A DNA stretch of 64,000 nucleotides, from contig NZ_JAKCWP010000003.1 in assembly GCF_028767125.1 (NCBI RefSeq), positions 1 to 64,000 on the forward strand. Direction: 5' to 3'. Both the position numbers and the translations under genes were made by a program. The first letter of the stretch is position 1; each line of letters begins with the position of its first letter. The notes below the pieces were generated by a model, which worked only from the letters and a program-made list of their open reading frames with translations, made no database searches and had not been told where the DNA came from. This document shows, piece by piece, positions 7,987-53,826 of the stretch. This DNA comes from Chelativorans sp. YIM 93263. Its GTDB lineage: Bacteria > Pseudomonadota > Alphaproteobacteria > Rhizobiales > Rhizobiaceae.

Positions 7987-8532
7987 ATGTCCTCGCTGTC
8001 GCGCAAAAGTTTCGCTTTATTTCTGGCCGCTGCATTCGCCGTCGGTGGGGCTATTCCTGCAGGCGCGTCCGACCGCGAACGACGCTTCTTCGAGCAGATC
8101 GAGGGTCAGTGGACCGGCCCGGGAGAGATCGTCGCCGGAAAGTACGAAGGCACGAAGTTTGTCTGCAATCTCACGGGATCAGTGCCGGACAGAAATGCCG
8201 GCATGGCTCTCGAAGGGGGATGCCGCGTTGGCCTCTTCAACAAGAAGATGTCGGCTCGCGTCGAGCGCGCAGGAGGCGGTTACCGCGGCACGTTCCTCGA
8301 CGGCGCCAATGGCGAAGGCCTAGATGTGACCGGTGGAAGGGTCGGCGACAAGCACGTCGTGTTTTCCATTCACCGTCAAGAGCTGACCGGTGCGATGCAG
8401 GCGCGGATCGCCGACGAAAACACAATGAATGTCACGATTTCGGTCCACGTCGGCGATGAGTTGGTTCCGGTAATCGGCGTGAGTCTGAAGCGAACCGACG
8501 ACCGGACGGTGGGCGCCATCACATCGAAGTGA
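7987..8532 (+). CDS. Secreted hypothetical protein
   Basis: 181 residues with a signal peptide (SRKSFALFLAAAFAVGGAIPAGAS) and a small beta-rich mature part that opens RRFFEQIEGQWTGPGEIVAGKYEGTKFVC. The pattern W-x-G-x-G plus repeated short strands suggests a compact beta-barrel or lipocalin-like fold, but I do not recognise a named family. Two cysteines (FVCNLTG and GGCRVG) could pair in the periplasm. It stands alone upstream of lexA. Function unknown. Confidence 0.72.
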   Translation: MSSLSRKSFALFLAAAFAVGGAIPAGASDRERRFFEQIEGQWTGPGEIVAGKYEGTKFVCNLTGSVPDRNAGMALEGGCRVGLFNKKMSARVERAGGGYRGTFLDGANGEGLDVTGGRVGDKHVVFSIHRQELTGAMQARIADENTMNVTISVHVGDELVPVIGVSLKRTDDRTVGAITSK

Positions 8533-8581
8533 CCCGCTCGCGCGGTGCCGCGCAGCATCCGTGATTCACATTATGCTTGCG

Positions 8582-8622
8582 GAACACAAGCCGAACATAT
8601 ACTTTATGTTCTGGTTTCGTTT
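8582..8622. promoter_or_regulatory. Double LexA (SOS) box in the lexA promoter
   Basis: GAAC-ACAAGCC-GAAC (8582-8596) matches the alphaproteobacterial LexA box, a direct repeat GTTC-N7-GTTC read on the other strand. A second, opposed copy GTTC-TGGTTTC-GTTT (8608-8622) has one mismatch. The pair forms an overall palindrome through GAACATA...TATGTTC. It ends 25 bases before the lexA ATG, as expected for autorepression. Confidence 0.85.
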
Positions 8623-8647
8623 CTCTGTGATTGTGGGGCTCTGACGA

Positions 8648-9352
8648 ATGCTGACGCGCAAACAACACGAACTGTTACTCTTTATCAACGACCGCTTGAA
8701 GGAAACCGGTATTCCGCCTTCCTTCGATGAAATGAAGGACGCGCTGAACCTGGCATCGAAATCCGGTATCCACCGGCTGATCACCGCGTTGGAAGAGCGC
8801 GGCTTCCTCCGCAGACTGCCCAACCGTGCGCGTGCGATGGAGGTTATTCGTCTGCCCGAATCGATCGCCCCTGGCCTCGGCGGACGCAAGTTCTCCCCCA
8901 GCGTCATCGAAGGCGGGCAAAGCCGCACAGCGCCAGTTCCCCGCCCTGCGACCAGCAATGAAAATAGCGGAAGCATCGCTGTTCCAGTCATGGGGCGGAT
9001 CGCGGCCGGTGTGCCGATCGACGCAATTCAGCACCAGACGCATGAAATCAGCGTTCCGCCGGACCTGATTTCAAGCGGCGATCACTACGCGTTGGAGGTC
9101 AAGGGCGATTCGATGATCGAAGCCGGCATCTTCGACGGGGACACTGTCGTTATTCGGAAGACGCAGACGGCCAACCCCGGTGAGATCGTCGTGGCGCTAG
9201 TAGATGATCAAGAGGCCACGCTCAAGCGCTTCCGCCGCAAAGGCGCATCCATTGCTCTGGAAGCGGCCAACCCAGCCTATGAGACGAGAATCTTCGGTCC
9301 TGACCGTGTACGCATTCAGGGCCGCCTGACCGGCCTGATACGCCGTTACTGA
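8648..9352 (+). CDS. lexA: SOS repressor LexA
   Basis: 234 residues, the longer form usual in Rhizobiales. The N-terminal winged-helix domain ([39 protein letters not shown]) binds the GTTC-type box. The C-terminal S24 self-cleaving domain has the scissile A120-G121 (RIAAGVP), nucleophile S155 (KGDSMIEAG) and lysine K193 (EATLKRF). RecA-stimulated autoproteolysis would derepress DNA-damage genes. A double LexA box sits directly upstream. Convergent with comEC. Confidence 0.97.
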
Positions 9353-9361
9353 TCCGGCACG

Positions 9362-11707: not shown

Positions 11708-11807
11708 TTTCTCTCCACAGGCGCTTGCGCCGCGACCTGCCTATGCTACAGGACGGGCCGCCGATTTCCAGTCGAGCGGAGCTTGGCTCGCAACAATCGA
11801 GATGATC

Positions 11808-13235
11808 ATGACAAAACCCGTCGTCACACGCTTTGCGCCCTCACCTACCGGTTTCCTGCATATTGGCGGTGCGCGCACCGCATTGTTCAACTGGCTTTAT
11901 GCACAGCATACCGGCGGCACGATGCTTTTGCGCATCGAGGATACCGATCGGCAACGCTCGACGCCGGAAGCGACGCAGGCAATCCTCGACGGACTTTCCT
12001 GGCTGGGGCTCAGCTGGGAGGGCGACCCCATCTCCCAGTACGCCCGCGCCGATCGCCACCGCGAGGTGGCCGAGGAGCTCGTGCGCAAGGGGGAAGCCTA
12101 TTATTGCTATGCAAGCGCCGAGGAAATCGAGGAGATGCGCGAGAAGGCGCGTGCCGAAGGCCGTCCGCCGCGTTACGACGGCCGCTGGCGCGACCGGAGC
12201 CCAAGCGAAGCGCCGGAAGGCGTGAAGCCCGTGATCCGCATCAAGGCGCCGCGAGAGGGCGACACCGTCGTCCACGACGAGGTGCAAGGTCAGGTGCGGT
12301 TTCCTAACAAGGACCTCGATGACTTCATCATCGTGCGTTCGGATGGATCGCCCACCTACATGCACGCGGTGGTGGTCGACGATCACGATATGGGTATCAC
12401 GCACGTCATCCGCGGCGACGATCATCTGACCAACGCCGCCCGGCAGACGCTGATCTACAAGGCCATGGGCTGGGACGTGCCCGTCATGGCGCATGTCCCA
12501 CTCATTCACGGTCCCGACGGCGCAAAGCTCTCCAAGCGGCACGGTGCTCTCGGCGTGGAAACCTATCGCGCCATGGGCTATTTGCCGGTCGCACTGCGCA
12601 ACTATCTCGCCCGTCTGGGCTGGAGCCACGGCGATGACGAGGTGATGTCCACCGAACAGATGATCGAGTGGTTTGAGATCAAGGACATCAACAAGGGTGC
12701 GGCTCGCTTCGATTACCAGAAACTCGAAGCACTGAACGGCATTCACATCCGCCAGAGCGATGACGCTACGCTGTTCGCTCTTCTTCTCGACACGTTGCCT
12801 TATCTGGAGGGCGGTGAAGCGCTGCTTGGGCGGATGGACGAGGCCCGCAAGGCCCAGCTTCGCGCCTCCCTGCCCGGCCTCAAGGAGCGGTCCAAGACGC
12901 TCATTGAGCTTGCTGACGGCGCCCAGTTCCTTTTTGCCGAACGGCCGCTGGCGCTCGATGAAAAGGCAGCGAAACTGCTTGATGGTGATGCGCGCGCGAT
13001 GCTTGGCGAGTTGGCTTCCGAGTTGGACGATGTCCCGGATTGGTCGGCCGAGAGCACCGAAGCGGTCGTCCGCGCATTTGCAGAGCGCACCGAGCGCAAG
13101 CTTGGCAAAGTGGCCCAGCCGCTGCGCGCCGCGCTGACCGGCCGCACCACCTCGCCCGGCATTTTTGACGTCCTCGCCGTTATGGGGCGGGAGGAATCCC
13201 TCGGCCGGATTCGCGATCAGGTGAGCGGCTCGTAG
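11808..13235 (+). CDS. gltX: Glutamyl-tRNA synthetase
   Basis: Class I synthetase of 475 residues attaching glutamate to tRNA. Catalytic signatures are [19 protein letters not shown] at the N-terminus (HIGH-type motif) and GAKLSKRHG (KMSKS-type). The C-terminal anticodon-binding helical part ends [38 protein letters not shown] at 11808 gives MTKPVVTRF as in relatives; an in-frame ATG two codons earlier (11802) is equally possible. The open frame continues upstream without family similarity. Alphaproteobacteria often have two gltX copies, one of which misacylates tRNA-Gln; which one this is cannot be told here. Confidence 0.95.
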
Positions 13236-15083: not shown

Positions 15084-16196
15084 TTACCAGTTCACGCTGT
15101 AAGAAGCGGAAATGAATCCGGCCCAGCCGGAATCGACTGCGTCTCCGTAATGGTCTGCATCCGGCTGGTCGATCGTTGCCGAGGCAAGGTAAGTAGCACC
15201 ACCGCCCAGGCGCAACTCTCCACCAATGGAGTCACTCATATTCACGCCGCCGGCAAGACGCCACCTGTCGCTCCGGAAATCGTAACCGGTAGAAACACCG
15301 CGGTCCCACTGGAGGCTGACGACACCGGAAATATCTTCGCTGAAGGAATGGCCAAGGCCACCGGTGACCGTCCAACCGTCGCGCCAGTAATACTGGTTCT
15401 GCTGCGGCTGGAACCCGGCGATGGAAAAATCAAGCGTCTCGTTGACGGACCAATCCGTCCATTTGACCGAACCGAAAGCCAGCCATCCCGGCGCAATGCC
15501 AGATTGGACCTCTAACTCTACGCTTTGCGGCAATTCACCTTCACCAAAAGCAGGCGCTGGGCCAAACGGAGTGTTGGCAATGCCGGTCGCTTCGTGCTTC
15601 GTTCCCGAACGGTACATAAGCTGTGCACGCAGGGCGATATCCGGAATTTCGTAGCCAAGGCCCGCACGCCAGCCATAGGCATCGCTTTCAAGTCCGACAT
15701 CCAACGGGGCGCCCCCCAGAAGAGGAGGTGCCGCGGAAAGATCGTAATCAAACCGCTCAAGAAATCCGCCGCCAAGCACCGACAGGCGGCCCTGTCCGAC
15801 GTCCACGAAGACCGCGCAGGTAAGGCCGAACTCGTTCACGATGAATTCTTCGGATTCCTTCCCTGAAGGGCCGTAGGGTACGTCGAAGCTTGAAGCGGCT
15901 CCATAAGCGTCCGTATAGGTGCCGGCACAGGCAAGGTTTTCCGTCAGCCCGAGTTTCAAGGCCGCCGACGGAATGACGTAATTATCCAGATAGTTCGTAC
16001 CGACGAGGCGTGGGTCTGAAGCAGCAGAGAACTTGTGGCTCGGCATGACAACCGTCGCGCCGGCGCGTATGTTGAAATTGCCTTCTTCGTAAAGAATGTC
16101 GGTATCCGCCGCGCCGCGCGAAAAACCATTCGCCTGGGCACTTGCGGCTACAAGAACAACCCCCAGAGCGGTATATCCGAAAAGACTGAATCGCAT
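15084..16196 (-). CDS. FadL/OmpP1-family outer-membrane transport protein
   Basis: 370 residues with a signal peptide (MRFSLFGYTALGVVLVAASAQA) followed by NGFSRGAADTDILYEEGNFNIRAGATVVMP, the N-terminal pattern of Toluene_X/OMPP1 proteins. Alternating strands continue to a C-terminal tryptophan (SASYSVNW), as required for BAM-assisted insertion. FadL-type barrels let hydrophobic molecules such as fatty acids or aromatic compounds cross the outer membrane. At 370 residues it is shorter than E. coli FadL (~446). Substrate unknown. GGAGGG lies upstream of the start. Confidence 0.85.
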   Translation of the reverse strand: MRFSLFGYTALGVVLVAASAQANGFSRGAADTDILYEEGNFNIRAGATVVMPSHKFSAASDPRLVGTNYLDNYVIPSAALKLGLTENLACAGTYTDAYGAASSFDVPYGPSGKESEEFIVNEFGLTCAVFVDVGQGRLSVLGGGFLERFDYDLSAAPPLLGGAPLDVGLESDAYGWRAGLGYEIPDIALRAQLMYRSGTKHEATGIANTPFGPAPAFGEGELPQSVELEVQSGIAPGWLAFGSVKWTDWSVNETLDFSIAGFQPQQNQYYWRDGWTVTGGLGHSFSEDISGVVSLQWDRGVSTGYDFRSDRWRLAGGVNMSDSIGGELRLGGGATYLASATIDQPDADHYGDAVDSGWAGFISASYSVNW

Positions 16197-16593
16197 ACGA
16201 GGACCCTCCCTTACCTTTCAAGCGCTCGTGTGAAGGCAGGATACCAAGGCTGCCATTGCATACAAACAACTTCGCGCGCCTGATGGGAAATGAAGGCGGA
16301 TTTTACCTGTACGTAAGCCCCATTATTTTTGCCGGCGGCGCTATAGCGGCGCAGAAAGCGGCGCAATGATGCACGTTTTGGCCGCAAATCCGCCTTTTTA
16401 CAGCAACAATCGCGGTCGGCGAATGCTTCTGTTGCAAAAACGTAACAATTTTCCGAAAAGATGAATCGGCAGCCGAACGGGCCCGATACCGTCCCTTTCT
16501 GAGCCCGCGCACCGATGCTGACACGAATCATTCGATCCGACCTGGGGCTTTGCAGCTAGGTTTTACCGTTGCTGTTAACGGAGACGGGCGCGT
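16197..16593. other. Gene-free interval between valS and the FadL-like gene
   Basis: 397 bases with no credible gene. It should contain the promoter of the FadL-like gene (minus strand). Just past the valS stop a weak inverted repeat CCGTT/AACGG (16566-16581), followed on the minus strand by TAAAACC, may help end valS transcription. Nothing else stands out. Confidence 0.4.
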
Positions 16594-19377
16594 TCAGCCC
16601 GCCTCTCGCACGCGTGCCAGGGCGGCTTCGAGGCGCGTCTTGGCTTCGCCGAACTCGGCCAGCTTCTCTCGCTCGGCGGCGACGATCTCTTCCGGCGCAT
16701 TGGCGACGAACTTGTCATTGCCGAGCTTCTTTTCCAGGCGTTGGATCTCACCCGTCGTCTTGGCGATCTCCTTCTCCAGGCGCGCAACCTCGGTCTTCAG
16801 ATCGATCAGTTCGCCGAGCGGGAGGCTGAAGGTCGCCTCGCCCAGCAGGATCTGAGCCGCGCCCTTTGGCGCCTCGTCGGAAAAGACCACATCATCGATG
16901 CGCGCCAGGCGCTGGATGGCGGGCTGGTGACGGGCGACGCGCTCGCGCGTCGTCTCCTCGGCCCCGGCAACGACAAGCGGCGCGGTGGCCGACGGCGGGA
17001 CATTCATCTCCGCACGGACAGAACGAATGCCGGAAACGAGATCGACAAGCCAGTTGACATCGTCGGCGGCTTCCTCGTCCTCGAAGTCGGGCGAAGGCCA
17101 GCGCGTCAGCGCCAGGATTTCATCACGACCGCCCTCACCGGCCGTTTGCGCCCACAGCTCTTCGGTCATGAAGGGCATCATGGGATGGAGCAGCTTGTAG
17201 GTTTGATCCAGAACATAGGCCGTGCAGGCGCGCGCTTCGGCCTTCGCCTGCTCGTCATCACCGGAAAAGACGGGCTTCAGGAGCTCCAGATACCAGTCGC
17301 AGAACAGGCTCCATACGAAGCGGTAGGCGGACGCCGCCGCCTCGTTGAAGCGGTGAGAGGTAATCCCTTCCGTAATTGCATCGGAAGCGCGCGTCAGCTC
17401 CGTAAGGATCCAGCGGTTGATGGTGAGCGTGGCATCTTCCGGGATGAAATCGGGATCGCGCTCAACACCGTTCATCTGGGCGAAGCGGGTGGCGTTCCAC
17501 AGCTTGGTGCCGAAATTGCGGTAGCCGGCCACGCGCGCAGGGTCGAGCTTCACGTCCCTGCCCTGCGCGGCCATGATGGCCAGCGTGAAGCGCAGGGCAT
17601 CAGCGCCATACTCGTCCATGAGTTCCAGCGGGTCGATGACGTTGCCCTTGGACTTTGACATCTTGGCGCCGTTCTTGTCCCGCACCAGCGCGTGGACATA
17701 GACCGTGTGGAACGGCTCCTCGTCCATGAAGTGCAGGCCCATCATCATCATGCGGGCGACCCAGAAAAAGATGATGTCGAAGCCGGTGACCAGAACGGAC
17801 GTCGGATAATAGGTCTTCAGCGCCGGCGTCTTGTCCGGCCAGCCGAGCGTGGAAAAGGGCCAGAGCGCGGAGGAGAACCAGGTGTCGAGCACGTCCTCAT
17901 CACGGGTGAGGATCTCGCCCGGCTGGTAGTTCTCCAGCTTCTCCTCGACCCAGGCCTTCCATGCGCCTTCATGCGAGATGTAGTGCTGGATGGCAGCTTC
18001 CAGCGCCGTCTCCTCGTCCTTCTCGACGAAAACCTGGCCGTCCGGCCCGTACCAGGCCGGAATGCGATGGCCCCACCAGAGCTGGCGCGAGATGCACCAG
18101 GGCTGGATGTTCTCCATCCACTCGAAATAGGTCTTTTCCCAGTTCCTGGGCACGAATTTCGTGCGGCCCGCCCGGACGCTTTCAATCGCCGGCTTGGCCA
18201 GCGTCTTGGCATCCACATACCACTGGTCGGTGAGGAAGGGCTCGATAATGGTCGATTTCGACTTTTCGTCGTGCGGCACCATGTGGACGTGGTCTTCCAC
18301 CTTGCCGAGCAGGCCGCCCTCTTCCATGATCTTTACGATCAGCTTGCGCGCCTCGAAACGGTCGAGCCCTTGCAGTTGCTCCCACAGGCTGCGCTGCGCC
18401 TCGGTCGGCTCGAGGCCTTCGAGGAAATCCTCGTTCTCCACGATATCTATGGCGGCCTCGGCAGTCATCACGTTGATCGCAGGGAGGCGATGCCGCTTGC
18501 CGACTTCGAAATCGTTGAAGTCGTGCGCCGGCGTGATCTTCACCGCGCCGCTGCCCTTTTCCGGATCGGAATATTCGTCGGCGACGATCGGGATCTTACG
18601 GCCGACGATGGGCAGGATGATGTTCTTGCCGATCAGGTGTTTGTAGCGCTCATCGTCCGGGTTCACTGCGACAGCGGTGTCGCCCAGCATCGTCTCCGGC
18701 CGTGTTGTGGCAACGACGAGATAGGTTCTCTGATCTTCCGGGTCGAAGGTCATGCCCTCGATGGGATAACGGAAGTGCCAAAGATGGCCGTTGATCTCGA
18801 CCTGCTCCACTTCGAGGTCGGAGATTGCGGTCAAGAGCTTGGGGTCCCAGTTTACCAGCCGCTTGTCGCGATAGATGAGCCCCTGCTTGTAGAGCGATAC
18901 AAACACTTCGAGAACGGCCTTCGAAAGCCCCTCGTCCATGGTGAAGCGCTCGCGCGACCAGTCGCAGGAGGCGCCCAAACGCTTCAACTGGTTGAGGATC
19001 ACGCCGCCGGATTGGTCCTTCCACTCCCAGACCTTCTCGACGAACTTCTCGCGGCCGAGCTGACGCCGGTGGACCTGCTTCTCCATGAGCTGTCGCTCGA
19101 CAACCATCTGCGTGGCGATGCCGGCATGGTCCATCCCCGGCTGCCAGAGCACATTCTTGCCGCGCATGCGCTCGAAGCGGACCATGATGTCCTGCAGCGT
19201 GTTGTTGAGGGCGTGGCCGATGTGCAGCGAGCCGGTTACGTTGGGTGGCGGGATGACGATCGTAAAGGACTCGGCGCCCGGTTCAGCGCCGGCTCCGGCC
19301 TCGAACGCCCCTGCGTCGTCCCAGATTTCCGCGATTTTCGGCTCGACGCTCGTCGCGTCATAGGTCTTTTCAAGCAT
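16594..19377 (-). CDS. valS: Valyl-tRNA synthetase
   Basis: 927-residue class Ia synthetase that charges tRNA-Val. PPPNVTGSLHIGHALNN carries the HIGH motif near residue 55 and KMSKSKGNVIDP the KMSKS motif. Between them lie the editing (CP1) region and PWCISRQLWWGHRIPAWY. The C-terminal ~65 residues form the valine-type coiled-coil arm (LKTEVARLEKEIAKTTGEIQ and onward) that contacts the tRNA elbow. Length matches the family. It follows mfd by 110 bases on the same strand. Confidence 0.97.
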   Translation of the reverse strand: MLEKTYDATSVEPKIAEIWDDAGAFEAGAGAEPGAESFTIVIPPPNVTGSLHIGHALNNTLQDIMVRFERMRGKNVLWQPGMDHAGIATQMVVERQLMEKQVHRRQLGREKFVEKVWEWKDQSGGVILNQLKRLGASCDWSRERFTMDEGLSKAVLEVFVSLYKQGLIYRDKRLVNWDPKLLTAISDLEVEQVEINGHLWHFRYPIEGMTFDPEDQRTYLVVATTRPETMLGDTAVAVNPDDERYKHLIGKNIILPIVGRKIPIVADEYSDPEKGSGAVKITPAHDFNDFEVGKRHRLPAINVMTAEAAIDIVENEDFLEGLEPTEAQRSLWEQLQGLDRFEARKLIVKIMEEGGLLGKVEDHVHMVPHDEKSKSTIIEPFLTDQWYVDAKTLAKPAIESVRAGRTKFVPRNWEKTYFEWMENIQPWCISRQLWWGHRIPAWYGPDGQVFVEKDEETALEAAIQHYISHEGAWKAWVEEKLENYQPGEILTRDEDVLDTWFSSALWPFSTLGWPDKTPALKTYYPTSVLVTGFDIIFFWVARMMMMGLHFMDEEPFHTVYVHALVRDKNGAKMSKSKGNVIDPLELMDEYGADALRFTLAIMAAQGRDVKLDPARVAGYRNFGTKLWNATRFAQMNGVERDPDFIPEDATLTINRWILTELTRASDAITEGITSHRFNEAAASAYRFVWSLFCDWYLELLKPVFSGDDEQAKAEARACTAYVLDQTYKLLHPMMPFMTEELWAQTAGEGGRDEILALTRWPSPDFEDEEAADDVNWLVDLVSGIRSVRAEMNVPPSATAPLVVAGAEETTRERVARHQPAIQRLARIDDVVFSDEAPKGAAQILLGEATFSLPLGELIDLKTEVARLEKEIAKTTGEIQRLEKKLGNDKFVANAPEEIVAAEREKLAEFGEAKTRLEAALARVREAG

Positions 19378-19487
19378 GAAGGATTTCCGCGTTCTGCCCG
19401 CGTGTTATTCGGCTGTCCGGTGTAAAGCCGAAGGGTGTCGGCAAGTCAACCATACCGCCTTCGGCAGCGAAAGCTATACACCGCACC

Positions 19488-22400
19488 TCAGGCGGCCACT
19501 TTCTCCGCGAGGCGTACCAATTGCGTCATGACCGTCGCAGCACCCGCTAGGCGCTTCTCCGCCGTCGGCCAATCGCGGATGAGGACAATGCTCTGATCCG
19601 GGCGGATCTTGGCGCGCGGCCCCTGCTCGCCAATGTAGCCAACCAGGGCCGCGGGATCCGCAAACTCCTGATTGCGGAAGCGCAGCACGGCGCCCTTCGG
19701 CCCTGCATCCAGCTTCTCGACATTGGCCCGGCGGCAGAGCGCCTTGATATAGACGATCTTGAGGAGATGCTGGACCTCCTCCGGCAGCGGCCCGAAACGG
19801 TCGATGAGCTCGGCACCGAAAGCGTCGATCTCTTCGGCCGTTTCCAGTTCGCCCAACCGGCGGTAAAGCCCCAGGCGAAGCTGAAGATCGGGAACGTAGC
19901 TCTCCGGGATCATGACGGCAGTTCCGACGGTGATCTGCGGGGACCAGCCGGTATCGGCCGTTTCGGCCTCGCCGCGCATTTCCGCGACGGCTTCCTCCAG
20001 CATCTGCTGGTAAAGCTCGTAGCCGACTTCCTTGATGTGGCCGGACTGCTCTTCGCCCAGAAGATTGCCGGCACCGCGGATATCGAGGTCATGGCTGGCG
20101 AGTTGGAAGCCCGCGCCGAGGGTCTCCAGCGATTGCAGCACCTTGAGTCGGCGCTCGGCGGTGGGCGTGAGCTTGCGGTTGGCCGGTAGGGTGAAGAGCG
20201 CGTAGGCGCGCACCTTGGAGCGGCCGACGCGGCCGCGAAGCTGATAAAGCTGCGACAGGCCGAACATGTCGGCGCGGTGCACGATCAGCGTGTTTGCCGT
20301 GGGAATGTCGAGCCCCGATTCGACGATGGTGGTCGACAGGAGCACATCGTACTTGCCATCGTAGAAGGCGTTCATGATGTCGTCCAGCTCGCCCGCGGCA
20401 AGCTGGCCGTGGGCCGTGGCCACCTTGAGCTCCGGCACATGCTCGGCGAGAAAGTTCTTCACTTCCGTAAGATCGGAGATGCGCGGCACGACATAAAAGC
20501 TCTGGCCGCCGCGATAGCGCTCGCGCAGCAGCGTCTCGCGGATGACCAACGGATCGAAGGGCGAGATGAAGGTCCGCACGGCCATGCGGTCGACCGGCGG
20601 CGTGGCGATGAGCGAGAGTTCGCGCACGCCGGACATTGCCAATTGCAGCGTGCGCGGGATCGGGGTGGCCGACAGCGTCAGGACATGGACATCCGCCTTC
20701 AACTCCTTCAGCCGCTCCTTGTGCTTCACGCCGAAGTGCTGTTCCTCATCGATGATGAGGAGGCCCAGGTTTTTGATGTTCACCGCAGCGCCGAGAAGCG
20801 CATGGGTACCGATGACGATCTCGACCGTTCCATCGGCAAGCCCCTTCTTCGTCTCGGCCAGTTCCTTGCTGCTGACCAGACGCGAGGCCTGGCGTATGCG
20901 AACCGGAAGACCGCTGAAGCGCTCCTGAAACGTTTTGAAGTGCTGGCGGGCAAGGAGCGTGGTCGGGACGACGACGGCAACCTGAAAACCTTCCATCGCC
21001 GCGGCAAAGGCGGCACGCAGGGCCACCTCGGTCTTGCCGAAACCGACATCGCCGCAGACCAGCCGGTCCATCGGCTGGCCAGCGCCCAGATCCTCGAGAA
21101 CCGCCTCGATCGTTGTCTGCTGATCCTCGGTTTCATCATAAGGGAAACGCGCGGCAAACTCCCCATAGACGCCGTCGGGAGGCACTATCCGCGGCGCGGC
21201 TCGCATCTCGCGCTCCGCAGCCAGGCGGATAAGCTGCCCGGCCATCTCCAGAAGGCGCTTCTTGAGCTTGGCCTTGCGCGATTGCCAGGCAACACCGCCG
21301 AGCTTGTCGAGCGTGGTTTCGGCAGCGTCGGACCCGTAGCGGGAGAGAAGCTCGATGTTTTCCACCGGCAGGAACAGCCGGTCGTCGCCCGCATAGCGCA
21401 GTTCCAGACATTCGTGCGGGGCGCCGGCCGCCTCGATGGTACGCAGGCCTACAAACCGCCCGATGCCGTGGTCGGCGTGGACAACGATATCGCCCGCCGA
21501 AAGTGCGTTGACTTCCGAAATGAAATCAGAGGCTTTCTTGCGCTTCTTGGTGCGGCGGACGAGCCGGTCGCCCAGAATGTCCTGTTCGCTGACGACAGCG
21601 AAGTTCGCGGTTTCGAATCCTGCTTCCAACGGCAGAATACCGATGCCGGCCTGGCCCCGCGGCAATTTTCCGAGTGCATCAAGACTGTCCACCCGTGAAA
21701 CGCCGCCCAAACCATGCTCTGCAAGGATCTGGCCGAGCCGGTCGACCGAGCCTTCGCTCCAACCCGCGATCAGAACATGCTTGTCGTCGGCGCGCAGATC
21801 GCTGATGTGCCGGACCGCATGGTCGAAGACATTGGCGTTCGGATCGGCGCGTTCCTCGGCGAAGTTGCGGCCGGCGGCAGCGCCCGCGTGGAAGATCTTT
21901 GCGGCCCCCGCGTCGGGTGTGGCGAATGGTGTGAAGCGAATGAAGGCGCGTTCTTCCTCGACAGCCGCGATTTCCTCCGGGTCAAGATAGACCTTTAAGG
22001 GTTCGACCGGTTTGTAGGGAATGGCTTCGCCCAGGCTGGCGCCCTCGTCGAGCTGGCGCTTGCGCGCGTCATAGTGGTCAGTGATGAGTGTATGGCGCTC
22101 GCCGATAGCCTCCTGCGCGAGGTGATCGAGGACGAGCGGCGCATCCGGCAGATAGTCGAATATCGTCTCGAGACGGTCGTAAAAGAGCGGCAGCCAGTGC
22201 TCCATGCCGGAGAACCGCCGCCCCTCCGAGATCGCGGCGTAAAGCGCATCATCCCGCGAGGGTGCACCGAAAGTCTCGATATAGTTCCTGCGAAAACGGC
22301 TGATCGCATCAGGCGTGAGCGTGACCTCGCTCATCGCCTGCAGGGTCATTTCCGTGCGCTGCCCCGTGGTGCGCTGGCTGGCGACGTCAAAGGCGCGGAC

Positions 22401-46615: not shown

Positions 46616-46776
46616 ACTATTCCTTCCATCTGGAATCGTGCGGCAATCGCAACGGCAATGCAAGTCACTAAACGTTGGTCCGCAAACGAATTGCTGGGCA
46701 CACATGTGAACGGCAATTGATTTTTGGCGGCGGCCGACCGCACAACAGCAGCCCGAAGTGGGAGGGAACGAGGCAA

Positions 46777-47613
46777 ATGACGAATCCGCAATCCTGGCAC
46801 CTTGCTCACGGACGTCAGCTCGAGCTTGGCCGCGATGCCGCGATCATGGGGGTGCTCAACGTCACGCCGGACAGCTTTTCCGACGGCGGGCGCTATACGG
46901 CGTTGGAGGAAGCGGTGAAGCATGCGCACGCCATGGTGGAACAAGGCGCGGTGATCATCGACATCGGTGGCGAATCCACACGGCCGGGCGGCGCTCCCGT
47001 AACCGCCGAGAAAGAGCAATCGCGTGCCCTGCCCGTTATCGAAGCCCTGGCTGGTGAACCCGACATTCTCATTTCGATCGATACCTATCGTGCCGAGACG
47101 GCGCGGATGGCCGTTGCGGCCGGCGCACATATCATCAACGATGTCTGGGGCCTGCAGAAAGAACCAGAGATTGCCGGCGTGGCCGCGGAGAGCGGAGCGG
47201 GGCTCATGGTGATGCATACCGGGCGGGAGCGGAATAAACTCCCTGACGTCATCGCCGATCAATTCGCCTATCTGCGCCGTTCGCTGGAGATCGCGCATGG
47301 CGCCGGGGTGAAGGACGAGCAGATCGTGCTCGATCCCGGCTTCGGCTTCGCCAAGGACCCGCAAGAGAACGCGGAGATCATGGCACGTTTCGGCGAATTG
47401 GCCGGGCTCGGCTATCCGCTTGCTGTGGGCACATCGCGGAAGCGCTTCATCGGTCATTTCACCGGGCGCGAAGCAGACGACAGGGACACGGGAACCGCCG
47501 CCAGTTGCGCGCTGTTGAGAATGAAGGGCGCGTCGGTTTTCCGCGTACACGATGTCGCATGCAATAGAGATGCGCTTCGCATTGCGGATGCTATGCTGGC
47601 GGCGGAAAAATAG
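46777..47613 (+). CDS. folP: Dihydropteroate synthase
   Basis: 278 residues, TIM barrel. MGVLNVTPDSFSDGGRY and IDIGGESTRPGG are the two family signatures; SIDTYRAETARMAV and LDPGFGFAKDPQENAEIM complete the pterin-binding site. It joins p-aminobenzoate to hydroxymethyldihydropterin pyrophosphate and is the sulfonamide target. GGGAGGGAACGAGG precedes the ATG at 46777; the open frame upstream to 46675 shows no similarity. First gene of folP-folB-folK. Confidence 0.96.
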   Translation: MTNPQSWHLAHGRQLELGRDAAIMGVLNVTPDSFSDGGRYTALEEAVKHAHAMVEQGAVIIDIGGESTRPGGAPVTAEKEQSRALPVIEALAGEPDILISIDTYRAETARMAVAAGAHIINDVWGLQKEPEIAGVAAESGAGLMVMHTGRERNKLPDVIADQFAYLRRSLEIAHGAGVKDEQIVLDPGFGFAKDPQENAEIMARFGELAGLGYPLAVGTSRKRFIGHFTGREADDRDTGTAASCALLRMKGASVFRVHDVACNRDALRIADAMLAAEK

Positions 47614-47628
47614 GACAAGGCGGCACGC

Positions 47629-47988
47629 ATGTATGTCATCCGCATGAAGAACTGCGCCTTCTTCGCACGCCACGGTGTGCGCGACGAAGAGGAAACGCTG
47701 GGCCAACGCTTCTATGTTGATGCGGAGCTGACCGTGGATCCCGGCGGTGCACTCGCCAAGGACTCGATCGAGGGCACGGTGGACTATGGCGTCGCCTTTT
47801 CGGTCATCCAGACCATCATTACGGGCAAACGTCGTTATCTCATCGAATCGCTGGCGCTCGAGGTGGGCAAGGCCCTCTGTGACCGATTCCCCGAGATCGT
47901 CCATGCCTCCATCACCATCAGGAAGCCCAATGCGCCGGTCCCTGGCGTGCTGGACTATGTCGAGGTAACGGTTGACTGGCCGTCCTGA
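47629..47988 (+). CDS. folB: Dihydroneopterin aldolase
   Basis: 119 residues. MKNCAFFARHGVRDEEETLGQRFYVDAELTVD is the FolB N-terminus with the pterin-binding F-x-A-x-HG-V segment; TVDYGVAF and LIESLALEVGKAL follow. It splits 7,8-dihydroneopterin into hydroxymethyldihydropterin and glycolaldehyde. It follows folP by 15 bases and overlaps folK by 17 bases. Confidence 0.95.
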   Translation: MYVIRMKNCAFFARHGVRDEEETLGQRFYVDAELTVDPGGALAKDSIEGTVDYGVAFSVIQTIITGKRRYLIESLALEVGKALCDRFPEIVHASITIRKPNAPVPGVLDYVEVTVDWPS

Positions 47989-48499
47989 AACACGCGCATT
48001 CCTCGGCCTGGGCGGCAATATCGGCGATCCCGCAACGACAATGGCCATCGCGCTGCGTACGCTTGACGCGACGGACGGCGTATCGGTGGAGCGGGTCTCG
48101 TCTCTTTACCGGACACCACCGTGGGGCGAGGTCGACCAGCCGGATTTCCTGAATGCGGTGGCGGAAGTCAGAACTGGGCTCTCCGCGCGTGAACTTCTCG
48201 ACGCCTGCCTTTCCACCGAAAGAGCACTGAAACGCGAGCGCCGCGAGCGATGGGGACCGCGACTCATCGATCTGGACATTCTTCTTTACGGGGAGGAACG
48301 GATCGCGGGGGACGGCCTGGAGATCCCCCATCCACGAATGCTGGGGCGCGCTTTCGTTCTCGTCCCGCTTGCCGAGATCGCACCCGGCCTGACGCTGGAC
48401 GGCCTGACTGTCCGCGACCACCTTTCCCGGCTCGACACCGGCGGGATCGACCGCGTGAGCAACGGGACAGGCTGGTGGAAGGGTACCGGCGCCGAGTAG
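47972..48499 (+). CDS. folK: Hydroxymethyldihydropterin pyrophosphokinase
   Basis: 175 residues. FLGLGGNIGDP and the family signature ERRERWGPRLIDLDILLYG are intact, as is IPHPRMLGRAFVLVPLAEIAP. It pyrophosphorylates the pterin for FolP. The start is TTG at 47972 within the end of folB, with CGAGG just upstream, so folB and folK are translationally coupled. Confidence 0.95.
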   Translation: MTGRPETRAFLGLGGNIGDPATTMAIALRTLDATDGVSVERVSSLYRTPPWGEVDQPDFLNAVAEVRTGLSARELLDACLSTERALKRERRERWGPRLIDLDILLYGEERIAGDGLEIPHPRMLGRAFVLVPLAEIAPGLTLDGLTVRDHLSRLDTGGIDRVSNGTGWWKGTGAE

Positions 48500-48597: not shown

Positions 48598-48900
48598 ATG
48601 GCCGATCTGTACGTGGTTTACTGGCGTGACATTCCCGCGCAGGTTATCGTGCGCAAGGGGCGCAAGACAGCCAAGCGGGAGCTGCCGCTGCGCTTCACCG
48701 AAGCCATCGACATGTGCGCCATGCGCGTCGGCGCGCGCGACACCGATTCCTATCTGGCCGAGTGGCGGCGTGGAGAGCCTCAAACCGTGAGCGACGATCT
48801 GGACGCCGAGGCAGACAGGGCCATGACGGCAATCGAACAGGAATTCACGGAAGAGCGCCTGAAGGCGCTCGTCAAGGCAGGCGGTCATGCCGGGACCTGA
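48598..48900 (+). CDS. PF13769-type 'virulence factor' protein, first gene of the C1/corrinoid module
   Basis: 100 residues, MADLYVVYWRDIPAQVIVRK onward, then TAKRELPLRFTEAIDMCAMRVGARDTDSYLAEWRRGEP and an acidic C-terminus. This matches the small family labelled virulence factor (PF13769), found in alphaproteobacteria next to MttB-type methyltransferases, corrinoid proteins and MetF, so the name is probably misleading. GGAGGA stands 8 bases before the ATG at 48598. It overlaps the MetV-like gene by 14 bases. The biochemical role is unknown; a helper of methyl transfer is inferred from context. Confidence 0.85.
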   Translation: MADLYVVYWRDIPAQVIVRKGRKTAKRELPLRFTEAIDMCAMRVGARDTDSYLAEWRRGEPQTVSDDLDAEADRAMTAIEQEFTEERLKALVKAGGHAGT

Positions 48901-49477
48901 GCAGCACAAGGCGGCCATCACACAGGGCACGCTGGTGCGCAAAGCGCGCAGCCTCCTGGCCTATAAGCCGGCCGATGTTTCACCGCAGAGGCGGGTCCAG
49001 CGACACTACACCATGCGGCTGTGGTCCGTGCGCCATGCCCGCTTTCTCGAATGGTTGTATGCACGTTTCGCGGACATGTTTCTTACGCTTCACCCCGTGT
49101 GGAAAGCAGTCGGCTACGGCCGTGCGGAAAGACCAGTCAAATTCGTCGAGAAGCGCGTGAAGGGCCTTATGTTCGACTGCCGCATGTGCGGGCAGTGCAT
49201 TCTGTCGTCCACGGGCATGTCGTGCCCGATGAACTGTCCCAAGCAGCTCAGAAACGGGCCATGCGGCGGTGTGCGGGCGAACGGCAGTTGCGAGGTGGAG
49301 CCGGATATGCCCTGCGTCTGGGTGAAAGCCTGGGAAGGGGCGCAGCGCATGCGTGATCAGAACGCGATCTGCAACATACAAAAGCCGGTCGACCAGTCCC
49401 TGCGCGAAACATCCGCCTGGCTCCGCGTCACCGCGGCAACCGCGGCGGAGCGGGAGAAGGCATCGGAGGCACAATGA
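48887..49477 (+). CDS. MetV-like cysteine-rich methylenetetrahydrofolate reductase partner (MTHFR_C)
   Basis: 196 residues. A basic helical N-terminus (~90 residues) leads to a cysteine cluster C98-x2-C101-x2-C104-x8-C113-x3-C117-x8-C126 with PCGG, then C135 and C143. This is the MTHFR_C/PF12225 pattern of acetogen MetV, which pairs with the MetF flavoprotein and carries zinc or Fe-S. It overlaps both the preceding gene (14 bases) and metF (4 bases, ATGA at 49474), so the three are co-translated. Metal content and electron partner are not determinable. Confidence 0.87.
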   Translation: MPGPEQHKAAITQGTLVRKARSLLAYKPADVSPQRRVQRHYTMRLWSVRHARFLEWLYARFADMFLTLHPVWKAVGYGRAERPVKFVEKRVKGLMFDCRMCGQCILSSTGMSCPMNCPKQLRNGPCGGVRANGSCEVEPDMPCVWVKAWEGAQRMRDQNAICNIQKPVDQSLRETSAWLRVTAATAAEREKASEAQ

Positions 49478-50571
49478 ACCAACGCCCGCGCCAGCCGGAC
49501 GAAAACCCGCAAGGCATTGATCTTCCGCTCGATCCGCTCCCCGGTCATTCTTCGCACGGGCGGTTGGAGCGCGTTCTGAAACGTGGCGAGTTCGCCGTCA
49601 CGGCCGAGCTCAACCCGCCGGACAGTGCCAATGCGCAGGACGTCTATGAGCGTGCCGCGGTCTTCGACGGATGGGTGGACGGGATTAACGCCGTCGATGC
49701 CTCGGGCGCCAATTGCCACATGTCGTCCATGGGAATCTGCGCGCTGCTGACGCGCATGGGCTATGCACCGATCATGCAGATCGCCTGCCGCGACCGCAAT
49801 CGCATTGCCATCCAGGGTGACGTGCTGGGCGCGGCAGCCATGGGTGTCGGCAACATCCTGTGCCTGACGGGAGACGGGGTCCAGGCAGGCGATCAGCCGG
49901 GCGCCAAGCCGGTCTTCGACCTCGACTGCATGTCTTTGCTGGAGACGATACGGACCATGCGGGACGAGGAAAAGTTTCTCTCCGGGCGTAAACTCACGAC
50001 GGCGCCGGCGGTCTTCCTCGGCGGGGCTATCAATCCGTTCGCACCCCCTTACGATTTCCGACCCCAGCGGCTTGCCAAGAAGGTGGCAGCGGGGGCGCAG
50101 TTCGTGCAGAGCCAGTATTGCTTCGACGTGCCCATGCTGCGTGAGTACATGAAGCGTGTGCGCGACATGGGCCTGCACGAGAAATGCTTCATTCTGGTCG
50201 GCGTGGGCCCCCTCGCCTCGGCCAAGGCGGCGCGCTGGATCCGCTCCAATGTTCCCGGCGTTCATATCCCGGACTCGGTAATTGCGCGGTTGGAAGGTGC
50301 CGACAAACAGAAGGAAGAAGGCAAGCGCCTGTGCATCGACATCATCAACGAGGTGAAGGAGATCGAGGGCGTTTCCGGCATCCATGTCATGGCCTACCGC
50401 CAGGAAGAGTATGTGGCCGAGATCGTCCATGAATCCGGCGTTCTGAAAGGCCGCCGCCCCTGGAAGCGCGAGCCCGGTCCCGACGACGCGCTGGTGGCCG
50501 AGCGGCTTGACCATATTCTCGACAATCCCAGCGAAGAACCGGTGGATATGGTCAAGGATGCCGCGGGATAA
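49474..50571 (+). CDS. metF: Methylenetetrahydrofolate reductase, MetF-type barrel
   Basis: 365 residues, TIM barrel with FAVTAELNPPDSANAQDVYERAAVF at strand 1, IMQIACRDRNRIAIQGDVLGAAAMGVGNILCLTGDG (folate/FAD site) and AQFVQSQYCFDVPMLREYM. It interconverts CH2=THF and CH3-THF. It is longer than E. coli MetF (296) and lies directly behind the MetV-like gene, as in acetogens and unlike typical methionine-biosynthetic metF. In an aerobic host it may run in the oxidative direction to dispose of methyl groups. A separate biosynthetic metF may exist elsewhere. Confidence 0.9.
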   Translation: MNQRPRQPDENPQGIDLPLDPLPGHSSHGRLERVLKRGEFAVTAELNPPDSANAQDVYERAAVFDGWVDGINAVDASGANCHMSSMGICALLTRMGYAPIMQIACRDRNRIAIQGDVLGAAAMGVGNILCLTGDGVQAGDQPGAKPVFDLDCMSLLETIRTMRDEEKFLSGRKLTTAPAVFLGGAINPFAPPYDFRPQRLAKKVAAGAQFVQSQYCFDVPMLREYMKRVRDMGLHEKCFILVGVGPLASAKAARWIRSNVPGVHIPDSVIARLEGADKQKEEGKRLCIDIINEVKEIEGVSGIHVMAYRQEEYVAEIVHESGVLKGRRPWKREPGPDDALVAERLDHILDNPSEEPVDMVKDAAG

Positions 50572-50664
50572 GGGGCCAGAGAATAAGGGATCCGGGAGTA
50601 GGGAAATAGTGAAACGCGCAAACTGCCACGTTCCCTCCCTCAGCTTGAAATTGCAGAGATAACC

Positions 50665-50684
50665 ATATAAAGAAGTCTTTATAT
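50665..50684. promoter_or_regulatory. 20-bp inverted repeat upstream of the methyltransferase gene
   Basis: ATATAAAGAAGTCTTTATAT has perfect 9-bp arms around a central AG, ending 16 bases before the ATG at 50701. It lies in the only sizeable gap (129 bases) before the methyltransferase gene. The AT-rich symmetrical form suits an ArsR-type dimer site, possibly a SahR-like regulator of methyl metabolism. The regulator identity is a guess. Confidence 0.65.
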
Positions 50685-50700
50685 CGTTGGAGAACCGCGC

Positions 50701-51672
50701 ATGACCCGCACCATTGTCGCCTCAGCGACCAAAGAAGTCGTCATCGGCTTCGACCAGCCTTTCTGTGTGATCGGCGAGCGTATTAATCCGACCGGGCGGA
50801 AAAAGCTGGCGGCCGAGATGGTGGCCGGCAATTTCGAGACGGTGAAGAAGGATGCGCTCGACCAGGTCGCAGCCGGCGCCACCATGCTGGACGTGAACGC
50901 CGGCGTGACGGCTGTCGATCCGAACGCCACCGAGCCTGACCTGCTCGTGCAGACGCTTCAGATCGTTCAGGATCTTGTGGGTGTGCCGCTGTCCATCGAT
51001 TCCTCGGTTTCCGCAGCCATCGAGGCGGCCCTCAAAGTGGCGAAGGGTCGGCCACTGATCAACTCCGTGACCGGTGAAGACGAGAAGCTTGAGGCAATCC
51101 TCCCGCTCATCAAGAAATACGACGTGCCGGTGGTGGCGATTTCGAACGACGAAACGGGCATTTCCGAGGACCCGGATGTGCGCTTTGAAGTCGCCAAGAA
51201 AATTGTTCAGCGCGCGGCGGACTATGGCATCCCCGCGCATGACATTGTCGTCGATCCGCTCGTGATGCCTATCGGCGCGATGGGCACGGCCGGAAGGCAG
51301 GTCTTCGCGCTTCTGCGGCGCTTGCGCGAGGAGTTGAAGGTCAACACGACCTGCGGGCTTTCCAACATCTCTTTCGGCCTTCCCCATCGCCACGGCATCA
51401 ATGCCGCCTTCATTCCTATGGTCATCGGTGCGGGCATGACGAGCGCCATCATGAACCCCTGCCGACCGCAGGAGATGGAGATGGTGCGCGGCGCCAACGT
51501 ACTGAACGGTACGGACGCAAATTGCTACACCTGGATCATGACCTACAAGGACCATCAGCCGGCATCCTCTGGGAACTCAAACGCCTCGGCAGCGTCAAGC
51601 AGTAGTGGGGCCCAGGCCAGCGCGGCCGGACGCCGCCGCGGCGGACGAGAGGCACGGCGTACCCGGGTCTGA
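50701..51672 (+). CDS. Methyltetrahydrofolate:corrinoid methyltransferase (AcsE/MtgA-like)
   Basis: 323 residues with a pterin-binding TIM barrel: FCVIGERINPTGRKKLAAEM, ATMLDVNAGV, LSIDSSVSAAIEAAL, LINSVTGEDEKLE, DIVVDPLVMPIG and TTCGLSNISFGLPHR. These match AcsE and the MtgA-type enzymes that move methyl groups between a corrinoid protein and THF. The last ~35 residues are a low-complexity Ser/Ala/Arg tail absent from the barrel. AGAACCGCGC precedes the ATG. It would link demethylation of a donor such as glycine betaine with the MetVF pair upstream. Confidence 0.9.
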   Translation: MTRTIVASATKEVVIGFDQPFCVIGERINPTGRKKLAAEMVAGNFETVKKDALDQVAAGATMLDVNAGVTAVDPNATEPDLLVQTLQIVQDLVGVPLSIDSSVSAAIEAALKVAKGRPLINSVTGEDEKLEAILPLIKKYDVPVVAISNDETGISEDPDVRFEVAKKIVQRAADYGIPAHDIVVDPLVMPIGAMGTAGRQVFALLRRLREELKVNTTCGLSNISFGLPHRHGINAAFIPMVIGAGMTSAIMNPCRPQEMEMVRGANVLNGTDANCYTWIMTYKDHQPASSGNSNASAASSSSGAQASAAGRRRGGREARRTRV

Positions 51673-51747
51673 CTGGTCAGCGGAGGCTGCGGTGACCCTT
51701 CACCCCGTGGATGCCTGTATCCGCAACCCTCCGGAGGCGCGTGTCCA

Positions 51748-53826
51748 ATGAACGCACCAGCCAACACCGAAGATCACCTGGTGCTGTTCATGCCCTCGGG
51801 CAAGCGCGGACGCTTTCCCAAAGGTACGGCTATTCTGGACGCCGCGCGGGAACTCGGCGTGTATGTCGAGAGCGTGTGCGGCGGGCGGGCGACATGCGGG
51901 CGGTGCCAGATCGAAGTGCAAGAAGGTCACTTCGCCAAGCACAAGATCTCTTCGTCCAAGGACAGTATCTCAGCAGTTGGCCCAAAGGAGGCGCGCTATG
52001 CCGAAAAGCGAAATCTGCCGGCCGGTCGCCGCCTCTCCTGCTCCGCGACCGTTCAGGGCGATCTCGTCGTGGACGTGCCGCAGGATGCCATCGTCAACGC
52101 GCAGGTGGTTCGCAAGGATGCGGACCAACGCATCATCCACCGGCACCCGGCCGTGCAACTTTGCTATGTCGAGGTGGACGAGCCAGACATGCACAAACCG
52201 CTCGGCGACGTGGATCGGCTGAAAGCCGCACTTGCAAAGGACTGGGGATTCAAGCGCCTGGAGGCTGATTTTCATATTCTGAATCAGGTGCAATCGGCTC
52301 TGCGCCAGGGCGAATGGACCGTGACGGCAGCGATCCATCAGGATCAGGACGACGACGTCGCGCAGATCATCGCTCTGTGGCCGGGTTTGAAGAACGAGGC
52401 CTACGGCATTGCCTGCGATATCGGCTCGACCACGATCGCCATGCATCTCGTCTCGCTTCTTTCCGGGCGCGTAGTGGCTTCGGCGGGGGCAACGAACCCG
52501 CAGATCCGGTTCGGGGAAGACCTGATGAGCCGGGTTTCCTACGTCATGATGAACCCGGATGGCCGACCGGCCATGACGAAGGCGGTGCGCCTGGAAATTT
52601 CCAAGCTCGTGGACAAAGTGGCCGCCGAAGGCGGGATCGAACGCGCCGATATTCTCGACGCAGTCTTTGTCGGCAACCCGATCATGCATCACCTCTTCCT
52701 CGGCATCGATCCGACCGAGATTGGCGGTGCTCCCTTTGCCCTGGCCGTTTCCGGCGCCATAAAGGCTCGTGCGGAAGACTTGCGGCTGAGCCTCAATCCT
52801 GGTGCGCGGCTTTACGTGCTGCCCTGCATCGCGGGCCATGTGGGCGCGGACTCGGCTGCCGTAACCCTCTCGGAGGGCCCTCACCGGCAGGACGAAATGA
52901 TGCTGGTCGTCGATGTGGGAACGAATGCGGAAATCGTTCTCGGCAATCGCGAGCGCGTCGTCGCCGCCTCCTCGCCCACCGGCCCTGCCTTCGAGGGCGC
53001 TGAAATTTCCTCCGGCCAACGCGCCGCCCCCGGCGCGATCGAGCGCGTCCGGATCGAGCGCGAGACCTTGGAACCGCGCTTCCGCGTTATCGGATCGGAG
53101 CTCTGGTCCGATGACGAAGGGTTCGCCGAGGCTGTCGGTTCCACAGGCGTGACGGGTATCTGCGGCTCCGGAATCATCGAGGTGATTGCGGAGATGTATC
53201 TTGCCGGAATCATCTCGGAAGACGGTGTGATCGACGGCGCGTTGGCGGCGAAGACGTCCCGTATCATCTCCGAGGGGCGGACCTATTCCTATGTTCTGAA
53301 AGAACACGCGCCGCGCATAACGGTGACCCAGAACGACGTGCGCGCGATCCAGCTTGCAAAGGCCGCGCTCTATGCCGGCACGAAGCTTCTAATGGAGAAG
53401 CAAGGCGTCGAGACGGTGGACGCCATCCGGTTTGCCGGCGCCTTCGGCTCCTTCATCGACCCCAGCTACGCGATGGTTCTCGGCCTCATTCCCGATTGCG
53501 ACTTGAACAAGGTTTCAGCCGTCGGCAATGCAGCCGGCACTGGCGCGCGGATGGCGCTTCTCAATCGACAGCACAGGCGCGAAATCGAAGAGACAGTGCG
53601 GCGGGTCGAAAAGATCGAAACAGCGCTGGAGCCCAAATTCCAGGAACACTTTGTCTACGCGATGGCGCTGCCCAACAAGGTCGACCCGTTTCCGAAGCTT
53701 GCTGAACAGGTGGAATTACCGCCGCGCAAAGTATTGGGTTCGGATGAAGCCGGTGGCGAACGTCGCCGCCGCTCACGCGAAAGGCGCGCCAAAGCAGCGG
53801 ATGCCGCAAAAAATTCAGGGGGCTGA
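51748..53826 (+). CDS. RACo-type reductive activator of corrinoid proteins ([2Fe-2S] plus DUF4445/ASKHA)
   Basis: 692 residues. The N-terminal plant-type ferredoxin domain has C44-x5-C50-x2-C53 and C98 (VCGGRATCGRCQ, RRLSC). A linker is followed by the ASKHA ATPase fold from about residue 220 (ACDIGSTTIAMHLV, VVDVGTNAEIVLGNR, GICGSGIIEV, FAGAFGSFIDP). RACo proteins reduce Co(II) back to Co(I) in corrinoid methyltransferase systems using ATP. A basic, Arg-rich tail ends the protein. No corrinoid protein is encoded nearby, so its target is elsewhere. Confidence 0.92.
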   Translation: MNAPANTEDHLVLFMPSGKRGRFPKGTAILDAARELGVYVESVCGGRATCGRCQIEVQEGHFAKHKISSSKDSISAVGPKEARYAEKRNLPAGRRLSCSATVQGDLVVDVPQDAIVNAQVVRKDADQRIIHRHPAVQLCYVEVDEPDMHKPLGDVDRLKAALAKDWGFKRLEADFHILNQVQSALRQGEWTVTAAIHQDQDDDVAQIIALWPGLKNEAYGIACDIGSTTIAMHLVSLLSGRVVASAGATNPQIRFGEDLMSRVSYVMMNPDGRPAMTKAVRLEISKLVDKVAAEGGIERADILDAVFVGNPIMHHLFLGIDPTEIGGAPFALAVSGAIKARAEDLRLSLNPGARLYVLPCIAGHVGADSAAVTLSEGPHRQDEMMLVVDVGTNAEIVLGNRERVVAASSPTGPAFEGAEISSGQRAAPGAIERVRIERETLEPRFRVIGSELWSDDEGFAEAVGSTGVTGICGSGIIEVIAEMYLAGIISEDGVIDGALAAKTSRIISEGRTYSYVLKEHAPRITVTQNDVRAIQLAKAALYAGTKLLMEKQGVETVDAIRFAGAFGSFIDPSYAMVLGLIPDCDLNKVSAVGNAAGTGARMALLNRQHRREIEETVRRVEKIETALEPKFQEHFVYAMALPNKVDPFPKLAEQVELPPRKVLGSDEAGGERRRRSRERRAKAADAAKNSGG

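What the first reader, a model, noticed from the sequence alone, without database searches (positions are those of the whole stretch)
48598..53826. Acetogen-like methyl-branch module (PF13769 protein, MetV-like, MetF, AcsE/MtgA-like, RACo) without its corrinoid protein
Seen: five consecutive plus-strand genes, the first three overlapping, encode a MetV-type cysteine cluster (C98 to C143), a MetF barrel, a pterin-binding methyltransferase and a RACo with C44/C50/C53/C98 plus ASKHA fold. Known: MetVF, AcsE and RACo are the methyl branch of acetogen metabolism, and MttB-family plus corrinoid proteins feed similar sets. Inference: here it oxidises methyl groups, for example from glycine betaine, to formate via THF. 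The donor-specific methyltransferase and corrinoid protein are missing from the window, so the module is split or shared by several donors.
Basis: partly seen in the sequence, partly recalled or inferred. Interest (0 to 1): 0.75.

Follow-up and report, generated by a model that had tools for sequence, protein, structure and literature searches.

The report
Betaine-demethylation module split over two loci
These five genes are half of a vitamin B12-dependent system by which aerobic bacteria strip methyl groups from osmolytes such as glycine betaine; the other half sits elsewhere in the same genome, and a small uncharacterised protein travels with the system in most of its relatives.

Summary
In detail: five plus-strand genes (48598-53826) encode a PF13769 protein, MetV, MetF, a pterin-binding methyltransferase and RACo. 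The 'missing' parts are in the same genome on contig C12: two MttB proteins, a corrinoid protein, DUF1638, a betaine-homocysteine methyltransferase (MtgE-like) and a DMG-dehydrogenase-like gene. In 80 named loci the corrinoid protein lies beside the module in 77 and MttB in 73, so here a normally contiguous locus has been split. The system is known: MtgBCD(E) of Ruegeria pomeroyi (Mausz 2025, PMC12478193), not an acetogen pathway.

Two points I did not find in the texts seen. (1) PF13769 ('virulence factor') tracks the system: all 76 Alphaproteobacteria with it (two samples, about 288 genomes) also have RACo, and in two genomes without MttB it sits inside a split methionine-synthase operon. 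So it goes with the shared corrinoid core. Its model (pLDDT 94) has no significant PDB match. (2) The MetF slot is exchanged: MetV+MetF in 58 of 80 loci, a very diverged MTHFR-like protein in 19, neither in 3, never both; 6 changes on a tree.

Substrate, direction of MetVF, its electron acceptor and the role of PF13769 are inferred, not shown.

The parts
48598..48900 (+). PF13769 protein, 100 aa; in relatives it lies between DUF1638 and MtgD/MetF
   Evidence: Pfam 2.6e-24; gene order in relatives; AF2 model pLDDT 94, no PDB match at E<=0.001
48887..49477 (+). MetV-like subunit (PF12225/DUF5981) with 8 invariant Cys, probable Fe-S/Zn subunit of a MetVF-type MTHFR
49474..50571 (+). MetF2, flavin-type barrel; far below the NAD(P)H-MTHFR model (TIGR00676 54.5 bits, cut-off 293.7)
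50701..51672 (+). MtgD-like CH3-corrinoid/THF methyltransferase (pterin-binding)
   Evidence: naming after PMC12478193
51748..53826 (+). RACo/RamA-like reductive activator of corrinoid proteins, 692 aa
   Evidence: PDB 3zyy E 1.2e-94 over residues 9-644
46675..48499 (+). flank: folP-like (PF00809), folB, folK; not part of the module, but marks the new site; not seen at the locus of any of the 80 relatives

Best explanation
The five genes are the folate side and the corrinoid-reactivation side of an aerobic MtgBCD(E)-type methyltransferase system, most likely for glycine betaine. Proposed cycle: MttB1 (MtgB, on C12) moves a methyl group from glycine betaine to Co(I) of MtgC (C12); MtgD (window) moves it on to tetrahydrofolate; MetV-MetF2 (window) oxidises CH3-THF to CH2-THF, passing electrons over flavin and Fe-S to an acceptor not identified; FolD and formate-THF ligase carry it on towards formate; RACo (window), with ATP and a [2Fe-2S] cluster, rescues accidentally oxidised Co(II). 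DUF1638 (C12) and PF13769 (window) serve the shared MtgC/MtgD/RACo core in ways unknown. The same core with MtgE (C12) can make methionine. In this genome the ancestral single locus is split between DUF1638 and PF13769, with the PF13769-RACo block now between folK and ndk. Shown: gene content, families, conserved cysteines, gene order in relatives, co-occurrence. Inferred: substrate, direction, acceptor, relocation as the cause.
For: C12 holds MttB1, MttB2, MtgC-like, DUF1638, MtgE-like (PRK07534 544 bits, cut-off 338) and a DAO+GCV_T gene right behind MttB2. Of 80 named loci: MtgC 77, MttB 73 (two of these, L117 and L124, only partial 57-58% matches at the locus edge), DUF1638 79, MtgD 79, RACo 75 (the 5 without RACo end at a contig end). 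Window flanks folP/folB/folK/ndk found in 0 of 80 loci; in Aquamicrobium L098 the C12 neighbours a12253 and a13102 precede MttB1-MtgC-DUF1638-PF13769. MttB1 matches PDB 9yce 'Glycine betaine methyltransferase' at 7e-125 against 1e-38 for TMA methyltransferase 7xcl. R. pomeroyi mtgC and mtgD mutants lose growth on GBT and become Met auxotrophs; MetF2, RamA and DUF1638 rise on N-osmolytes (PMC12478193, sections 4 and 9 read). MetH here has its own PF02965 activation domain, so RACo is not needed for it.
Against: No expression, growth or enzyme data for this organism. MtgC scores 212 bits against a cut-off of 370 for NCBIfam MtgC. MttB substrate cannot be read from sequence; MttB2 and perhaps MttB1 may use other betaines. 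MetVF of acetogens works reductively in vivo, and no dedicated acceptor gene lies in the block. MetFx or no MetF fills the slot in 22 of 80 relatives, so MetVF is not needed by the system as such.
Confidence: 0.87

Rival explanations
1. The block is mainly a methionine-synthesis module: MtgC+MtgD+MtgE with RACo act as a split methionine synthase, and MetVF works reductively to supply CH3-THF.
For: G093 (L141) and G083 (L142) have MtgE-MtgC-DUF1638-PF13769-MtgD-RACo and no MttB match. R. pomeroyi and P. inhibens use these parts for methionine. MtgE-like gene on C12.
Against: This genome has MetH with its activation domain, the separate homocysteine part, and a NAD(P)H-type MetF beside it, and a second such MetF on C26. 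All 16 genomes of the order sample with MetV over cut-off also have MttB.
Confidence: 0.2
2. The module serves several donors, with GBT not the main one (for example carnitine, proline betaine or choline through MttB2 and others).
For: Two MttB paralogues and one corrinoid protein found; relatives hold up to 13 scored MttB genes.
Against: MttB2 adjoins a dimethylglycine/sarcosine-type dehydrogenase, which fits GBT. Compatible with the best explanation rather than opposed to it.
Confidence: 0.35
3. Acetogen-type Wood-Ljungdahl methyl branch.
For: MetV, MetF, an AcsE-like methyltransferase and RACo are also acetogen parts.
Against: Below cut-off for CODH_ACS_meth (134 of 370) and AcsV (393 of 800); relatives are Rhizobiales and kin with the MttB-MtgC locus. 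CODH/ACS itself was not searched for.
Confidence: 0.02

Closest known systems
MtgBCD(E) with RamA, DUF1638 and MetF2 of Ruegeria pomeroyi DSS-3 (PMC12478193; sections 4 and 9 read)
   Same: MttB-family protein, corrinoid MtgC, pterin-binding MtgD, MtgE, RamA/RACo, DUF1638, a MetF paralogue beside mtgD
   Different: Here split into two blocks; MetF comes with MetV; PF13769 present. The main text has no occurrence of 'virulence', 'PF13769' or 'MetV'; its figures and supplements were not seen. Also here a complete MetH coexists, as the paper says is typical for Hyphomicrobiales.
Split methionine synthase with RamA-like and DUF1638 proteins of Phaeobacter inhibens (PMC5764234; passages seen)
   Same: same reactivation pair; paper notes that some genomes such as S. 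meliloti have the pair although their MetH has its own activation domain, unexplained there
   Different: In this genome MttB and MtgC supply an explanation for keeping the pair
Type II methylenetetrahydrofolate reductase MetVF of acetogens (PMC8760232; section 3, first of two parts, read)
   Same: MetV next to MetF, Cys-rich MetV, MetF outside the NAD(P)H-type model, no RnfC2 or Hdr gene in the block
   Different: Aerobe with an MttB system; probable oxidative use
RACo of Carboxydothermus (PDB 3zyy; organism recalled)
   Same: full-length match, 2Fe-2S Cys set and ASKHA domain
   Different: about 320 bits, below NCBIfam AcsV cut-off; partner is MtgC rather than the corrinoid Fe-S protein

Membership tests
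MtgBCD(E) glycine betaine methyltransferase system | non-pyrrolysine MttB protein in the genome | tested here: met
   two PF06253 genes, no stop inside; TIGR02369 (Pyl MttB) below cut-off
MtgBCD(E) glycine betaine methyltransferase system | stand-alone corrinoid protein MtgC | tested here: met
   L009:18091-18897, PF02607+PF02310; below the NCBIfam MtgC cut-off, as expected if, as the paper says, aerobic MtgC is distinct from the Desulfitobacterium one
MtgBCD(E) glycine betaine methyltransferase system | pterin-binding MtgD and RamA/RACo | tested here: met
MtgBCD(E) glycine betaine methyltransferase system | GBT demethylation activity | not testable with these tools
   needs enzyme or growth assay
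Type II MetVF-type MTHFR | MetV encoded next to MetF | tested here: met
   58 of 80 loci
Type II MetVF-type MTHFR | MetF is not of the NAD(P)H type | tested here: inconclusive
   TIGR00676 54.5 bits against 293.7, while C26 (340.7) and C23 (306.1) MetF pass; the NADH site itself was not examined
Type II MetVF-type MTHFR | ferredoxin or viologen rather than NAD(P)H as partner | not testable with these tools
   -
Acetogen CODH/ACS methyltransferase AcsE / activator AcsV | NCBIfam cut-off | tested here: not met
   134.4 of 370; 393.2 of 800
PF13769 (Virulence_fact) | Pfam gathering score | tested here: met
   85.8 bits, cut-off 25; the family name says nothing about function here

The most novel reading that the evidence does not exclude
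PF13769 is an unrecognised third member, beside RACo and DUF1638, of the machinery that keeps stand-alone corrinoid methyltransferases alive in aerobic Alphaproteobacteria (for example a protein that docks MtgC to RACo or MtgD, or shields Co(I) from oxygen), and the 'virulence factor' label is wrong for this branch of the family.
Probability: 0.55. Interest if true: 0.65.

Novelty: new variant of a known kind. Interest (0 to 1): 0.45.

Why it matters
It turns an odd-looking 'half module' into a known osmolyte-demethylation system, explains why genomes with a self-reactivating MetH still keep RACo and DUF1638 (left open in PMC5764234), and singles out one small conserved protein, PF13769, as a testable part of B12 methyltransferase maintenance under air. 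The repeated exchange between MetVF and another MTHFR-like protein in one operon slot poses a clear question: which electron acceptor lets aerobes burn methyl-THF.

Tried and rejected
Acetogen Wood-Ljungdahl reading: rejected on family cut-offs and on gene context. RACo as activator of this genome's MetH: rejected because MetH carries PF02965. First thought that PF13769 belongs to MetV: dropped, since 30 of 43 PF13769 genomes lack MetV over cut-off. PF13769 fold: Foldseek against PDB gave 503 matches with E<=10 but none <=0.001, best 0.43 with TM 0.27, so no relative is claimed. MetV structure: AF2 mean pLDDT 55.6, Cys region under 50, not used. MetV in the PDB: phmmer none at 0.01; profile best 2ctd, a zinc finger, E 0.068, taken as chance. 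The own-genome third MTHFR-like gene (L013:4524-5396) is about 30-33% identical to MetFx of relatives, so not treated as its orthologue. ORF a15171 used as a query is antisense to the MtgE-like gene and was discarded as a gene. Paper searches without a useful hit. One search (CvfC/YpgR) gave nothing I could use; that the Bacillus/Staphylococcus members of PF13769 are YpgR/CvfC is recalled.

Results against the PF13769 reading: 5 of 48 RACo genomes of the order sample and 7 of 41 of the class sample lack PF13769; I read RACo loci of all 5 of the first set, found no PF13769 in those stretches with a profile, and three (L137, L138, L139) hold the MttB-MtgC-DUF1638-MtgD-RACo row without it. Bacillus subtilis, one of 14 control genomes, has PF13769 but no RACo match, and Methanosarcina acetivorans has RACo without PF13769, so outside Alphaproteobacteria the link fails. 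In 13 of 43 genomes PF13769 and RACo were not within 6 kb on one strand (12 on different contigs, 1 155 kb away). The Fisher p values ignore shared ancestry.

Full report
What is there. The cysteine claims hold and are conserved: eight MetV cysteines in 58 of 58 rows, four RACo cysteines in 76 of 76.

The missing half. A search of the own genome (4.25 Mb, 27 contigs, 99.99% complete) found two MttB genes, both on C12, and B12-binding_2 domains at two places, one on C12 and one in MetH on C23. The C12 stretch L009 reads: MttB2 (7775-9541 +), a DAO+GCV_T protein as in dimethylglycine and sarcosine dehydrogenases (9575-12235 +), an MtgE-like betaine-homocysteine methyltransferase (15195-16244 +), MttB1 (16280-18130 -), the corrinoid protein (18091-18897 +) and DUF1638 (19126-19788 +). 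The start codons listed are those of the longest frames. The genome also has a complete MetH in two genes with its own activation domain, two MetF genes that pass the NAD(P)H-type model, a weaker MTHFR-like gene, FolD and formate-THF ligase.

Relatives. Within up to 10 kb on each side the corrinoid protein is present in 77 of 80, MttB in 73 (two only as partial edge matches), DUF1638 in 79, MtgD in 79, RACo in 75; the five without RACo stop at a contig end. The usual row is MttB(-) MtgC DUF1638 ... PF13769 MetV MetF2 MtgD RACo. Window flanks (folP, folB, folK, ndk) were found in none of the 80 loci, while L098 (Aquamicrobium) keeps C12-type neighbours before MttB1. The simplest reading is that this genome moved the PF13769-RACo block. 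Another split case is L095 (Mesorhizobium ephedrae), where PF13769-RACo follows the MetH genes.

Known system. Mausz et al. 2025 (PMC12478193; outline, passages, sections 4 and 9 read) show by mutants and proteomics that MtgC and MtgD of R. pomeroyi are needed both for GBT growth and for methionine, with MetF2, RamA and DUF1638 induced, and they report that in S. meliloti mtgBCDE, the reductive modules and cobalamin genes are colocated. Price et al. 2018 (PMC5764234; passages) tie RamA and DUF1638 to the split methionine synthase and leave open why genomes with a complete MetH keep them. The present genome fits that system.

PF13769. In 101 genomes of the order, PF13769 is in 43, RACo in 48, MttB in 45, DUF1638 in 42, MetV over cut-off in 16. 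All 43 PF13769 genomes have RACo (Fisher 2.6e-23), 39 have MttB, 37 DUF1638, 13 MetV. In a class sample of 190 genomes (at least three shared with the first) PF13769 is in 34 and RACo in 41, and again all 34 have RACo (Fisher 5e-31). That is 76 distinct PF13769 genomes, all with RACo; two of the RACo matches in the class sample that go with it or stand alone are short fragments (G107, G176). The p values ignore ancestry. PF13769 genomes without MttB are G007, G011, G083 and G093; in G083 and G093 the row is MtgE MtgC DUF1638 PF13769 MtgD RACo, which points to the shared core rather than to the methyl donor or to MetVF; in G011 the parts found are far more diverged. Exceptions and the failing link outside Alphaproteobacteria are told under Tried and rejected. 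The motif W-R-D-I-P-A-Q is invariant in 61 aligned sequences, the model is confident, and no PDB relative was found by sequence or fold. The string PF13769 occurs in no paper of the held library.

The MetF slot. Between PF13769 and MtgD, 58 of 80 loci hold MetV+MetF2, 19 hold a protein of about 295 aa that matches PF02219 only marginally (two tested: 19.9 bits, under, and 25.4 bits, just over the cut-off of 24), 3 hold neither, none holds both. On an MtgD tree of 78 rows the label changes 6 times, at least 5 for MetV if only well-supported branches count, and 0 of 200 shuffles are as low. Three rows (L056, L097, L107) carry a far diverged MtgD on a long branch and may add to the count. Acetogen work (PMC8760232, section 3 part 1) groups MetF alone with NADH as type I, called irreversible there, and MetV+MetF as type II, whose reverse reaction was coupled to FAD and rubredoxin. 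This makes oxidative use of MetVF plausible; it does not show it.

Confidence. Identity of the system 0.87 as a whole; PF13769 as part of the core 0.55; MetVF running oxidatively about 0.75; glycine betaine as the main substrate about 0.7.

Noticed in passing
46675-48499: folP-like, folB and folK genes stand directly upstream of the module, so folate synthesis and folate-dependent C1 genes adjoin here; not seen at the locus of the 80 relatives.
   Followed up: partly
L012:5168-9808 (C23): MetF, a separate homocysteine-binding protein and an 891-aa MetH without that domain lie in a row: a two-gene MetH.
   Followed up: partly
L013:4524-5396 (C23): A further MTHFR-like protein (34 bits to PF02219), 30-33% identical to the MTHFR-like protein that replaces MetVF in relatives; function unknown.
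   Followed up: partly
L045:10317-10864: MetV of Nitratireductor aquibiodomus matches in two frames, which suggests a frameshift or an assembly error.
   Followed up: no
G039 (C35, C7, C26): One genome of the order has four RACo matches, the others one each in that sample.
   Followed up: no
L140 (G011:C69): A diverged RACo/corrinoid/PF13769 cluster in a genome without MttB and DUF1638 matches; possibly another corrinoid system.
   Followed up: no
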